Shown piece by piece: positions 24,500-28,270 of a DNA stretch of 64,000 nt. The notes beneath the pieces are model-generated. The model did no database searches. It was not told the DNA's origin and saw nothing but the letters and a program-made list of their open reading frames with translations. Every line of letters begins with the position of its first letter. Within the stretch, counting starts at the first letter, position 1. The translations under genes and the position numbers were made by a program. Source of the DNA: Archilochus colubris. Taxonomy: Eukaryota; Chordata; Aves; Apodiformes; Trochilidae. Location: the NCBI GenBank assembly GCA_023079485.1, contig CM041090.1, positions 32,080,874 through 32,144,873 on the forward strand, written 5' to 3'.

Positions 24500-24505
24500 T
24501 TAGGG
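24500..24505 (+). repeat. Left target-site duplication TTAGGG
   Basis: The six bases directly before the TG end of the palindromic element. They are identical to the six bases directly after its CA end. Confidence 0.8.
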
Positions 24506-24768
24506 TGTAGTGAAATGAGGCAACCAGGTGCCACTAATTGCCAGGGAGTGAGCATGAGCTTGTTTCAAGCCCACCTGTGCCTAATTAGGGTGGGCTCCCA
24601 CTGCGTATGAGCAGGACCAGGGGGCCAATAAAAGGTAAGACCTAAGACACAGGCTCAGCTCACACTGGAACTCACAATCTTGGCATGCTTGACTTTAAGT
24701 GCTGCTTTCAGCACTGCACTACCTTTATTGCTCCACTAGAGCTCATCGCTGTCAGGGTGAGGCTTGAG
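24506..24768 (+). repeat. Left arm of the long inverted repeat
   Basis: Begins TGTAGTGAAATGAGGC. It pairs with 24836-25081 over nearly its full length. It carries an extra 18 bases at 24709-24726 that the right arm lacks; with the bases before it this forms AGTGCTG-CTTT-CAGCACT (24698-24715), a small perfect hairpin. Confidence 0.93.
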
Positions 24769-24843
24769 TGGCGCAGACGGCTAAGCGTGTAACAACACAA
24801 CCCGAGCAATGCTGAGGGCCGCACGTTCAAGACTCCTCAAAGC
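24762..24843 (+). other. tRNA-like domain, 82 nt, class II shape, at the hairpin tip
   Basis: Acceptor-like stem GCTTGAG (24762-24768) pairs with CTCAAAGC (24836-24843) with one bulged A. The A box TGGCGCAGACGG (24769-24780) fits TRGYNNARNNGG at every position. The D stem GCGC/GCGT encloses AGACGGCTAA, with the GG pair in the expected place. The B box GTTCAAGAC (24825-24833) fits GWTCRANNC exactly. A mini-stem AGC-AAT-GCT (24805-24813) sits where a long class II (Leu/Ser type) variable arm would be. The anticodon stem is poor and the T stem has largely lost pairing, so this is a degenerate tRNA-derived or tRNA-mimicking sequence and not a functional tRNA gene. The first T4 run downstream, a possible Pol III stop, is at 24954-24957, giving a predicted RNA of about 195 nt. 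Confidence 0.7.
24769..24833 (+). promoter_or_regulatory. Putative internal Pol III promoter (A box plus B box)
   Basis: Full-consensus A box at 24769-24780 and B box at 24825-24833, 56 bases start to start, which is normal spacing for class II tRNA genes and tRNA-derived SINEs. It is oriented to the right and has no equivalent on the other strand. Activity is inferred from sequence only. Confidence 0.6.
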
Positions 24844-25081
24844 CTCACCCTGACAGCGATGAGCTCTAGTGGAGCAATAAAGCAGCACTTAAAGTCAAGC
24901 ATGCCAAAATTGTGAGTTCCAGTGTGAGCTGAGCCTGTGTCTTAGGTCTTACCTTTTATTGGCCCCCTGGTCCTGCTCATGCACAGTGGGGGCCCACCCT
25001 AATTAGGCACAGGTGGGCTTGACACAAGCTCATGCTCACTCCCTGGCAATTAGTGGCACCTGGTTGCCTCATTTCACTACA
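24836..25081 (-). repeat. Right arm of the long inverted repeat
   Basis: Reverse complement of the left arm, ending CACTACA. It contains AATAAA at 24876-24881 on the plus strand and TTTT at 24954-24957. It lacks the 18-base segment present in the left arm. Confidence 0.93.
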
Positions 25082-25087
25082 TTAGGG
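25082..25087 (+). repeat. Right target-site duplication TTAGGG
   Basis: Exact copy of 24500-24505, directly after the CA end. The base patterns outside these hexamers do not continue the palindrome. Confidence 0.8.
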
Positions 25088-25109: not shown

Positions 25110-25455
25110 CTTGGAAAAGGATGCTGTGTAATTTCAGAGTCAGGAAAAGAAGAATTCAAGGAGGAGACAGGCTTTTTAGTAGGGTCTGTTACAACAGGAC
25201 AAGGGACAATGGTTTTAAACTAAAAGAGGGTAGATTCAGACTAGATATAAGGAAGAATTTTTTTACAATGACAGTAGTGAAACTGGAACAGGAGAGGTGA
25301 TAAATGCCCCACCCCTGGAAACATTCAAGGTCAGGCTGGAAAGGTCTCTGAGCAACCTGATCTAGTTAAAGATGTCACTACTTATTGTAGAGGGGTAGGA
25401 CTAGGTGATCTTTCACCTAGGTCCATTCTTATCCAAATGATTATGTGACTATATA
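25110..25455 (+). mobile_element. CR1 LINE, 3'-end fragment (ORF2 C-terminus and UTR)
   Basis: The plus-strand frame contains residues FRLDIRKNFFTMTVVKL preceded by TRDNGFKLKEGR. These are the diagnostic C-terminal residues of CR1 ORF2 (family form: RTRGNGxKLxxGRFRLDIRKxFFTxxVVKHWN). The UTR follows with 'gagcaacctgatctag' and 'ggtaggactaggtgatctt'. The tail repeats are eroded. The start is approximate. It lies about 30 bp from the palindromic element, but the two are separated by unique bases and by that element's own target duplication. Confidence 0.85.
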
Positions 25456-26370
25456 ATTCTAAGAAAAGATTTTTAGCAACCTGCTTTGCTAGGAATCAGT
25501 ATGTATTGGTGATGCTATGTTTGTTAGATTTAGGCATTGCTTGGATGTGAGGATTTAGATAATAATCAGATTTTAGATAATAATCAGACTTTAGCCATGT
25601 TAAAGTATGTATTTATTGAGAAGAACATAATGAGAAGGTCAGAAAGTCTGTGATAGAAAAATTTGTGATTTAGCCAAACTAAATTAGAATGGTTAGTAAG
25701 TCATTCACAAAGATAGCAGATTGAAACCTCATTTAAAACAAAAGGAGACAGGAGATAAATATGTTGGCGCATCTGTGAATCTTCAGCAAAGAGATGAGAA
25801 GGGAATGTTTGGTTGTAGTTACAATCGCACAAAGTTAGAAGCCTTCAGTTTCCTTACCAAGAGATAGGGGATCCTCCAGAGGATGTATTAAAGAAATGAT
25901 TAGAGAAACAGCTGAGTAAAGCCAGACCTAAGGTAGCTCAGAGAGATTTCAAGGAGAGCAGAAGCAGAGAAGCCAAGAGGAGTTACGGTTATAGCAGTGA
26001 GTCTGAGATCTGGCAAAGCAAATACCATTAGATGTTGTGGAAAGAATGGTTTCATTTAAGGGGAGAGGAGGGAAGCCAGATTGGAAGAATTCTAGGAAGA
26101 AAAAGTGTAAACAGAACATTCAGAAAACTCAGAGATGAAAGTGTGACTGCAGATGGGCCAGTAGCTAGAGATGCAAGGAGTCAAAAGTGCTTTATTTATG
26201 ATGTGAGACACTTAACATATGGTATAGCAAGCAGAACAAACTAGAAATGGTGAAAACAACAAATCAGAGGAGACCAAGAGGTTAAGGAGAGGAATAAGGG
26301 AGGGGAGAATGGGCACACAGAAGATGAAGAGCTAAGAAGAGGACAAAGATCAATTCACTTGTGAAAGAAA
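25456..26370. other. Gene-free stretch
   Basis: No gene or further repeat recognised between the CR1 fragment and the microsatellite. A small local duplication, 'tagataataatcaga', recurs at about 25556-25588. Confidence 0.5.
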
Positions 26371-26480
26371 GGAAAGGAAAGGAAAGGAAAGGAAAGGAAA
26401 GGAAAGGAAAGGAAAGGAAAGGAAAGGAAAGGAAAGGAAAGGAAAGGAAAGGAAAGGAAAGGAAAGGAAAGGAAAGGAAA
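26371..26480 (+). repeat. (GGAAA)22 perfect pentanucleotide microsatellite
   Basis: Exactly 22 uninterrupted GGAAA units (110 bp), with imperfect edges (GAAAGAAA before, GGGAAAAGG after). The strand is purely purine, so H-DNA (triplex) formation is plausible. On the minus strand it reads as a PFLSF-repeating frame that is not a gene. Confidence 0.97.
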
Positions 26481-28270
26481 GGGAAAAGGTAGAACCACAG
26501 GATTAGGGTGCAGTTCAATATGAGCCAGTGCAGCTGCCCACCTAGACTTCCAGCAGAAGAAAAAGAGCGTTGTGTTAATGAAGTGGATTTAATATCCTTT
26601 TTTAGATGCAGTTAAAATTATGGTCTTCACAATCCTTAATTTCAGACCTCTCCTAGAATTAGGAAGGCCCATATTAGAAAGGGCATCCGTCAGGACAGAA
26701 TGGAGGCTTCATGATAGTTTCAGAAGAGAATTATTAAGCTTGTTAAAAGGCAATGGTATATAAGAATAAGCAGATTTATAGCAGTCAGGAAACCACAGAA
26801 AAGTCTGAAATTAGCACGTACATTTTTATTACATGCATATTTTAGTCACCAAGTTATTTTGTGTAAGCTTAGTCTGAACGAAGGAAATAGACACATTTCC
26901 AGTAAAATATTTCCAGTTGAATGCAGTGATATTTACCCACACAGAAGACACAGCCCTCTCTTTCCATAGCATGGTGTTCCTTAGCAAGGTCTGAGAGTCC
27001 TACAGCACACACGTGCAGCAGCTGCAGGGCTAATGCAAATCACAGAAGGCAGAGACTATGACCATAGAGTGAGATACAGACACCATTAGCCTTGTTGGCT
27101 GCGTTATGAACCGGACCAGGAAACCAATCCAGGCTAAAACTAATCAAGCAGAAGCTTAATTTTCAAACTGACTCATTTCCCAATCATCTTCAGTGACTAG
27201 CTGAAAGCTTGCACTTGCAGAGGAAATAGTATGGGTGGGACAGTGGCACAGGGAAAAGGAGGGGACAGTCTTCCTGCACAATACTTTTTTGTTTCTTCAT
27301 AAGGACTAAACCACCTTGCAGAGAGGGGATGAATAACTAACTTATTTAAGTCCTGTCTAATATGAATGAAATTTTGTTGTATGTAAGCTGTCCAGCATCT
27401 CCAAGCTGCACTGGTTTCTCATCATGTGATATCTTAGACCTATTCCCTGCACTAGAGACAGCATATTCCTATTACAATTGTAAGTGAATCCAAACTTAAA
27501 TAGCTTGCTCATTCTCACTCTGAGCCAATTTAAAAAAAAAAAAATCTGCTTCACTTCCTTCATGTCTTTCATTCCCTTAGCTTAATTACAGTGTTCCTTG
27601 TCATATGTCAAATAGTTCCTCTCCTATTTTGTCCACCTCTTCCAAAATTTAGATTGCAGCCATGCCCTGATGGTCTTAGCCTTGTCTAAGTACCACCACT
27701 GTTTCTTTGTACTGAAGTGGTGGCCTTACAACACAAAGGCACTCAGGAGCAAACAGTATTAGCTAGCTTGCTGCACATAAGCTCCTCTATATTTCACCTC
27801 ATCTATCATTTCTTCTTTCCAAGTATCTGCTCCCTGCTGAATCATCTCAATTTATAAGGTATTGGTTAGCCCTTGTTTGTAGGGAAAGTAAGAATTAAAA
27901 ATGATGGTTTAACTCATGACTTCCAGCAGGCTTGGAGTCAAAAGTTGTTTTAACTCCCTGCCAGTGAGAAGAGGCAGTGGGGACTGTTAACACTAGCAGC
28001 CTGAGCCACTGGAGAACATTGTCTGAAATGTGCTTTAATAGAGACTCCTTTGGAGGAATACTTAGTCTGCTAATGCTACAAAATCTGTTCAGCATGACCC
28101 TCAAAATACACTGGTTTTAATTGAAACCATCCCAGAGCCAGGGTTTCAATTTGAAGAGGCGCAAAAGAACAGTCATCCTATTGGATCCAGGACCTAGGTA
28201 ACTGAATGGTTTGACCAAGGGCTCAAACTGGTTCTCATCCTTCATACTATATCTAGACTGACTGTTTCTC

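What the first reader, a model, noticed from the sequence alone, without database searches (positions are those of the whole stretch)
24506..25081. Palindromic 576-bp insertion: foldback arms with retroviral-style TG...CA ends
Two inverted arms of about 250 bp, about 98% identical, end exactly at TG/CA and are bounded by an identical hexamer. Seen directly: symmetry, ends, duplication, and absence of any coding frame. Known: TG...CA ends with 4-6 bp duplications are made by retroviral/LTR-type integrases and by a few DNA transposons with related integrases (Ginger-like), whereas foldback elements and MITEs have long inverted repeats. Inferred: a non-autonomous element combining both, possibly arising when an integrase joined two identical U3-type ends of an inverted duplication. 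I know no named bird family like this.
Basis: partly seen in the sequence, partly recalled or inferred. Interest (0 to 1): 0.92.

Follow-up and report, generated by a model that had tools for sequence, protein, structure and literature searches.

The report
Inverted-dimer insertions of retroviral LTR ends
A 576-base palindrome in this genome belongs to a large family of small insertions in which two outer ends of an old retrovirus's terminal repeat sit back to back, apparently inserted by a retroviral integrase, which points to an unusual way in which retroviral enzymes make non-coding mobile DNA.

Summary
The palindrome is real: arms 24506-24765 and 24840-25081, 237 of 242 aligned bases identical plus one 18-bp gap, TG...CA ends, perfect 6-bp duplication TTAGGG. 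It is not unique: the host genome has 5,757 matches to the arm end and 476 to the loop (reversed controls 0). Of 92 inverted-end elements collected, 84 have a 6-bp target duplication with at most 1 mismatch (random pairing 0.7%). The ends are the U3 end of an endogenous retrovirus LTR: they occur in solo LTRs with 6-bp duplications and beside a primer-binding site, gag and an integrase ORF of class II type. The loop has pol III-like A and B boxes but no recognisable tRNA. Inner structures vary (46 short elements fall into 25 groups), but some recur (one group of 12), so copying of whole inverted elements is also possible. Best reading: U3-started cDNA strands joined or copied head to head during reverse transcription, then inserted by a class II retroviral integrase. 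The integrase part is well supported; the joining step is inferred.

The parts
24500..24505 (.). left copy of the 6-bp target-site duplication TTAGGG
25082..25087 (.). right copy of the 6-bp target-site duplication TTAGGG
24506..24662 (+). left arm, outer 157 bp: U3 end of the LTR (shared with solo LTRs of the genome), starts TG
   Evidence: the 324-bp solo LTRs share this 157-bp part with the arms
24663..24765 (+). left arm, inner 103 bp (not shared with the 324-bp LTR)
24766..24839 (+). loop of 74 nt between the arms, with tRNA-gene-like (pol III type 2) motifs
   Evidence: no tRNA model match
24769..24779 (+). A-box-like motif (consensus TRGYNNARNNG, recalled)
   Evidence: the only A+B pair in the 64-kb window, both strands, at the spacing allowed
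24825..24833 (+). B-box-like motif (consensus GWTCRANNC, recalled)
24754..24768 (+). 5' side of an acceptor-like stem; its first base corresponds to reference position 249, the commonest unit start
   Evidence: stem seen directly
24836..24851 (+). 3' side of the acceptor-like stem
   Evidence: loop alignment; seen directly
24810..25081 (-). part that other loci carry alone as a solo-LTR-like insertion (TGCTG...CTACA) with 6-bp duplications
   Evidence: L056, L057, L077, L084, L085, L103, L111
24840..25081 (-). right arm, inverted copy of the left arm, ends CA; lacks 18 bp present in the left arm

Best explanation
The element is a non-coding retroelement derivative with two U3-type LTR ends pointing outward. 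A class II (betaretrovirus-like) endogenous retrovirus of the same genome supplied reverse transcriptase and integrase. Strands that begin at the U3 end (the start of the retroviral plus strand) were extended to a short inner terminus and then joined to, or copied back on, another such strand or themselves, giving a short linear DNA with a U3 end at each side. Integrase inserted it by both U3 ends with a 6-bp staggered cut. In the window's subfamily the inner part is a unit of about 346 nt with a pol III-like promoter at one end and the antisense U3 at the other; an acceptor-like stem lets the unit's own end pair with its interior, which gives the nearly perfect palindrome. Shown: family, ends, duplications, relation to LTR and provirus, varied inner structures. 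Inferred: this ERV's integrase as the enzyme, joining during reverse transcription, pol III transcription.
For: 92 inverted-end elements in held loci: outer 6-mers differ at 0 positions in 69, 1 in 15, 2 in 2, 4 or more in 6; random flank pairing gives 0 in 0.025% and 1 in 0.65%. 15 inverted pairs taken from the genome list without regard to interior: 12 perfect, one with 1, one with 2, one with 4 mismatches; 111-565 bp. The same U3 end in solo LTRs with 6-bp duplications (8 of 20 single-end loci). Provirus context: LTR, TC, 18-nt primer-binding site, leader, gag p24 and an integrase ORF whose best PDB matches (3jca, 5cz2, 7usf) I recall as MMTV integrase, RSV next. L066 and L071: the left piece is the whole LTR plus 18 nt of primer-binding site (19 if the following A is counted), which I recall as the end point of plus-strand strong-stop DNA; then the loop unit, all within one 6-bp duplication. 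Unit starts in 43 non-contiguous loop copies: 25 at reference 240-256, 10 at 298-305, 5 at 210-239, 3 at 257-297, 0 at 4-209. L036, L067, L082 and L104 carry a second unit starting at 249 or 250.
Against: Recurrent structures: of 46 elements under 540 bp, 29 fall into 8 groups of like structure (12, 5 and six pairs), 5 of the 15 random pairs in one group; this fits copying of whole inverted elements or favoured junctions. The repeated units of L036, L067, L082 and L104 could also be tandem duplications. L066/L071 are two cases. Seven loop copies start at 240-253 without a left piece, and none has a 6-mer matching the right flank with fewer than 2 mismatches within 30 nt. Inner arm columns differ more (up to 19%) than the duplications (19 of 516, 3.7%), though between-copy differences rise inward too. 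How a pol III transcript would get an exact U3 end is unexplained; a snap-back strand has one open end. The polypurine tract search did not complete. Ten full-length copies have 0 differences in 1,556 U3 sites, while 3 of the 9 with in-register duplications have a mismatch there: some arm identity may be later conversion. The ERV's own reverse transcriptase was not seen.
Confidence: 0.6

Rival explanations
1. Non-autonomous inverted elements that, once formed, are copied as whole units from a few masters with the help of ERV enzymes; most variants are later deletions or new masters.
For: 476 matches share a loop; full palindromes near 594 bp recur; 12 of 46 short elements form one group of 201-217 bp and 5 another of 471-479 bp; pol III-like boxes.
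Against: 17 of 46 short elements are alone in their structure; unit starts cluster at 240-256 and 298-305 instead of spreading; two U3 ends without U5, PBS or PPT give no known way to regenerate the ends from RNA (inference).
Confidence: 0.22
2. A MITE-type DNA transposon family with long terminal inverted repeats, moved by a DDE transposase related to retroviral integrases (Ginger-like), with internal deletion derivatives.
For: Inverted ends, short non-coding bodies, duplications, many length variants.
Against: The same ends are U3 ends of solo LTRs and of an LTR with primer-binding site, gag and integrase nearby; seven copies have ends TGCTG...CTACA with the same 6-bp duplications; two copies hold a primer-binding site. 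Ginger makes 4-bp duplications (recalled). No transposase was searched for.
Confidence: 0.09
3. Ordinary LTR insertions rearranged after insertion: one LTR inserted in the opposite orientation in or beside another, followed by deletion and arm-to-arm gene conversion.
For: Solo LTRs are common; some arms look converted; complex copies exist (L080, L105, L124).
Against: 84 of 92 elements have one duplication around the outer ends with at most one mismatch, and 18 of 18 close pairs among the 100 listed ends have the same TGTAG...CTACA arrangement; later rearrangement would not restore this in most copies.
Confidence: 0.07

Closest known systems
Class II (betaretrovirus-like) endogenous retrovirus solo LTRs
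   Same: Same U3 end, TG/CA, 6-bp duplication, same genome; integrase ORF beside the LTR is closest to entries recalled as MMTV integrase
   Different: A solo LTR has a U3 and a U5 end in one orientation; here both ends are U3 ends in inverted orientation
Helenus / TRIMp3 elements (Kojima 2024, PMC10886601; abstract, passages and sections 3.3, 3.5 and 4 read)
   Same: Small non-autonomous LTR-type elements with tRNA-gene-like A and B boxes, thought to be moved by an autonomous LTR element
   Different: Helenus has two LTRs with PBS and PPT between them and makes 4- or 5-bp duplications; the words 'bird', 'avian', 'inverted' and 'palindrom' do not occur in its main text
DIRS-1 type retrotransposons (PMC5633606, passages read)
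   Same: Inverted LTR-type ends
   Different: DIRS-1 encodes a tyrosine recombinase and is thought to insert from circles; here 6-bp duplications and TG/CA ends
MITE / foldback DNA elements
   Same: Long inverted repeats, no coding capacity
   Different: Ends belong to a retroviral LTR

Membership tests
LTR retroelement insertion (retroviral integrase) | TG...CA ends | tested here: met
LTR retroelement insertion (retroviral integrase) | fixed-length target duplication | tested here: met
   84 of 92 elements 6 bp with at most 1 mismatch
LTR retroelement insertion (retroviral integrase) | one U3 and one U5 end, LTRs in direct orientation | tested here: not met
   both ends are U3 ends
Class II ERV as donor of ends and enzymes | gag p24 and class II type integrase next to the same LTR | tested here: met
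   one broken locus only, reverse transcriptase of this ERV not seen
Helenus / TRIMp3 | pol III promoter motifs in the element | tested here: met
   A and B boxes; no transcription data
Helenus / TRIMp3 | direct LTRs with PBS and PPT between them | tested here: not met
   window copy has inverted ends and no PBS (one search found it in 5 held loci only)
DNA transposon (MITE) | autonomous partner with transposase and the same ends | not tested
   no transposase search was made; the same ends were found on an ERV LTR
DIRS | no target duplication (recalled), tyrosine recombinase | tested here: not met
   6-bp duplications; recombinase not searched
tRNA-derived SINE | head recognised as tRNA | tested here: not met
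   no Rfam tRNA match in 20 loci at E up to 5; ARAGORN 0 in 39 loci

The most novel reading that the evidence does not exclude
A new class of retroelement in which a small pol III-type RNA carrying an antisense U3 captures the helper retrovirus's nascent plus strand (which supplies the exact U3 end), is copied to its own 5' end, folds back on its acceptor-like stem to make the second strand, and is inserted as a U3-U3 inverted dimer by the helper's integrase.
Probability: 0.18. Interest if true: 0.9.

Novelty: new variant of a known kind. Interest (0 to 1): 0.7.

Why it matters
Integrase normally acts on one U3 and one U5 end. A family of perhaps more than a thousand chromosomal insertions (rough estimate and 24 fetched loci) with two U3 ends would be a natural record that a retroviral integrase can use two U3 ends in vivo, would expose end points of unfinished reverse transcription in the genome, and would add a source of unstable palindromes that repeat searches built on direct LTRs could mislabel.

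Tried and rejected
tRNA identity of the loop: no support (a relaxed ARAGORN run gave only poor fits). Copies elsewhere: no match in phages and plasmids; one 19-mer from the arm has no match in GTDB contigs and one in viral contigs, where the likeness ends after 26 bp. Long upstream partner for five copies without a left piece: none within about 9.4 kb (L089-L093). The gamma-type provirus near L091 is on the other strand, 3.5 kb away. The reverse transcriptase in L149 is LINE-like, not of the ERV. I first took to show that short elements have unlike arms; with equal columns 1-58 the two classes are alike (39 of 2,187 and 64 of 2,809), so this was dropped; in columns 1-125 they still differ (2.6% and 5.1%), which junctions inside that range may cause. 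Literature: ten searches of the held library, listings seen; none listed an inverted-LTR bird family.

Full report
Observation. The window element spans 24506-25081. Searches confirm two inverted arms (260 and 242 bp, 5 mismatches in 242 aligned columns, one 18-bp gap), TG/CA ends and TTAGGG on both sides. The extra 18 bp lie between two CTTT in the left arm, so the right arm probably lost them (inference).

Family. The search of the window's own genome (G000, 1.1 Gb, 182 contigs) scored 40 of 2,502 first-look candidates. Of 40 copies examined (39 fetched loci plus the window copy), 31 are full-length palindromes. The loop pattern has 476 matches with up to 3 mismatches and the arm-end pattern 5,757; the reversed control patterns have none. 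Among the first 100 exact end matches listed, 36 fall in 18 close pairs by my reading, all as TGTAG...CTACA. Of 24 other listed ends that I fetched (20, 4), 8 have an inverted partner with mismatches (L117, L118, L126, L127, L129, L132, L150, L152). Extrapolated, about 57% of ends would sit in inverted elements, or some 1,600 elements; this rests on one part of one contig and is crude.

Target duplications. In 92 inverted-end elements gathered from the held loci the outer 6-mers differ at 0 positions in 69, 1 in 15, 2 in 2, and 4 or more in 6; where several right ends lay within 720 bp the one with fewest mismatches was taken, which favours agreement slightly; random pairing gives 0 mismatches in 0.025% and 1 in 0.65%. 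The duplicated 6-mers differ from copy to copy, so TTAGGG is not a shared target.

What the ends are. Eight of the 20 single-end loci are solo LTRs of 251-325 bp with 6-bp duplications of at most one mismatch (L116, L120, L121, L123, L125, L128, L130, L133; L116 and L128 do not keep the exact CA at the U5 end). The arms share with the 324-bp LTRs the outer 157 bp. In L114, L122, L124, L066 and L071, and in no other held locus at that time, the other end of this LTR is followed by TC and an 18-nt primer-binding site, which fixes the orientation: the palindrome's outer ends are U3 ends. Downstream of L122, in L154, Pfam finds gag p24 (the zinc knuckle is just under its cut-off) and, in another frame, an integrase zinc-binding and core domain; the best PDB matches, 3jca, 5cz2 and 7usf, are entries that I recall as MMTV integrase, followed by entries of which several are named RSV or avian sarcoma virus integrase. 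A search with leader and gag of this locus scored 40 of 285 candidates, 35 of the 40 on contig C32, perhaps the W chromosome (inference). The same primer-binding site is followed by several different leaders in this genome, so it does not name the helper by itself.

Interior. The loop has matches to the A- and B-box consensus, 56 bp from start to start, the only such pair in the window; one chance pair in 64 kb would not be very rare, but the loop alignment shows both boxes in many of the 30 other full-length copies (not counted). No tRNA model matches. In 60 loop-selected loci the loop-bearing unit is contiguous with a left arm in 17; in the other 43 its start lies at reference 240-256 in 25, at 298-305 in 10, at 210-239 in 5 and at 257-297 in 3 (reference is copy L018). 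Position 249 is 15 nt before the A box. Seven copies start at 305 with TG and a perfect 6-bp duplication, thus as LTR-like insertions (L056, L057, L077, L084, L085, L103, L111). Seven copies start at 240-253 with no left piece, and no 6-mer with fewer than 2 mismatches to the right flank lies within 30 nt (L053, L065, L083, L086, L088, L094, L098); five of these were followed about 9.4 kb upstream without finding a left end.

Junctions. Copies with a left piece, down to 16 nt (L081), keep the TGTAG end and, with few exceptions, the 6-bp duplication. L066 and L071 have the whole LTR plus 18 nt of primer-binding site as left piece; the next base is A in both, so 19 nt cannot be excluded. L036, L067, L082 and L104 contain a second unit that starts at 249 or 250; deletion cannot make this, tandem duplication could. 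The 15 pairs include elements made of U3 pieces only. Of 46 elements under 540 bp, 17 are alone in their structure and 29 fall into 8 groups, the largest of 12 (201-217 bp) and 5 (471-479 bp); the grouping is by single linkage and may lump near-by junctions. So the structures are many, but not all are independent.

Arm identity. In columns 1-58 the two arms of a copy differ at about 2% of sites, arms of different copies at 5-6%. The duplications of the 86 elements with at most 2 mismatches differ at 19 of 516 positions. So the outer U3 parts are no more diverged than the duplications and were alike at insertion. In 43 full-length copies the within-copy difference rises inward (1.7% in columns 1-40, 5.0% in 121-157, 9.7% in 158-200, 18.9% in 241-248, 4.7% in 249-260), but so does the between-copy difference (5.4, 13.5, 20.1, 29.2 and 5.5%); the ratio is 0.31-0.48 in five of eight zones, 0.60 in 81-120, 0.65 in 241-248 and 0.85 in the stem 249-260. 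Some copies have very unequal inner arms (L030, L074, L106), as if two templates were used. Ten copies have 0 differences in 1,556 U3 sites, yet 3 of the 9 with in-register duplications have a mismatch there, which suggests later arm-to-arm conversion in some. The window copy differs at 4 of 157 U3 sites and 1 of 65 inner sites.

Mechanism. I infer that class II retroviral reverse transcription produced U3-started strands with different inner ends, that two such strands (or one folded on itself) became one linear DNA with U3 ends at both sides, and that integrase inserted it. For the window's subfamily the acceptor-like stem (24754-24768 with 24836-24851) would guide the pairing. The step that gives the pol III-type unit its exact U3 end is unexplained, and re-copying of finished inverted elements is not excluded.

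Relation to known kinds. It works like an LTR insertion but fails the rule of one U3 and one U5 end. It resembles Helenus/TRIMp3 (PMC10886601) in size and pol III-like boxes but lacks direct LTRs with PBS and PPT. It resembles DIRS only in inverted ends. No bird family like it was listed in ten searches of the open-licence library; most subscription papers and Repbase/Dfam could not be searched, so a repeat library may already hold it under another name.

Noticed in passing
window 26363-26482: GAAAG microsatellite, about 24 units, 99% matches.
   Followed up: no
window about 25160-25480: Sequence just right of the element looks like a CR1 LINE 3' part (recalled motif, not tested).
   Followed up: no
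L091 640-5935: Long open frames with Gag_p30, protease, reverse transcriptase, RNase H and MLV-type integrase C-terminus, opposite strand, about 3.5 kb from a loop-bearing unit.
   Followed up: partly
G000 contig C32: 35 of 40 scored matches to the ERV leader/gag lie on this 32-Mb contig, perhaps the W chromosome.
   Followed up: no
G000, pattern: The primer-binding site TGGTGGAGAATGCGGGCA is followed by several different recurrent leaders, so several ERV families may share one primer; some listed matches are followed by unique sequence.
   Followed up: no
L117, L118, L126, L129, L132, L134, L137, L140, L144, L148, L150, L152: A recurrent short inverted class of 201-217 bp; an amplified lineage or favoured junctions.
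   Followed up: partly
L114 with L155: Two LTRs with primer-binding sites in inverted orientation; the 6-mer of the right flank occurs one base off beside the left end.
   Followed up: partly
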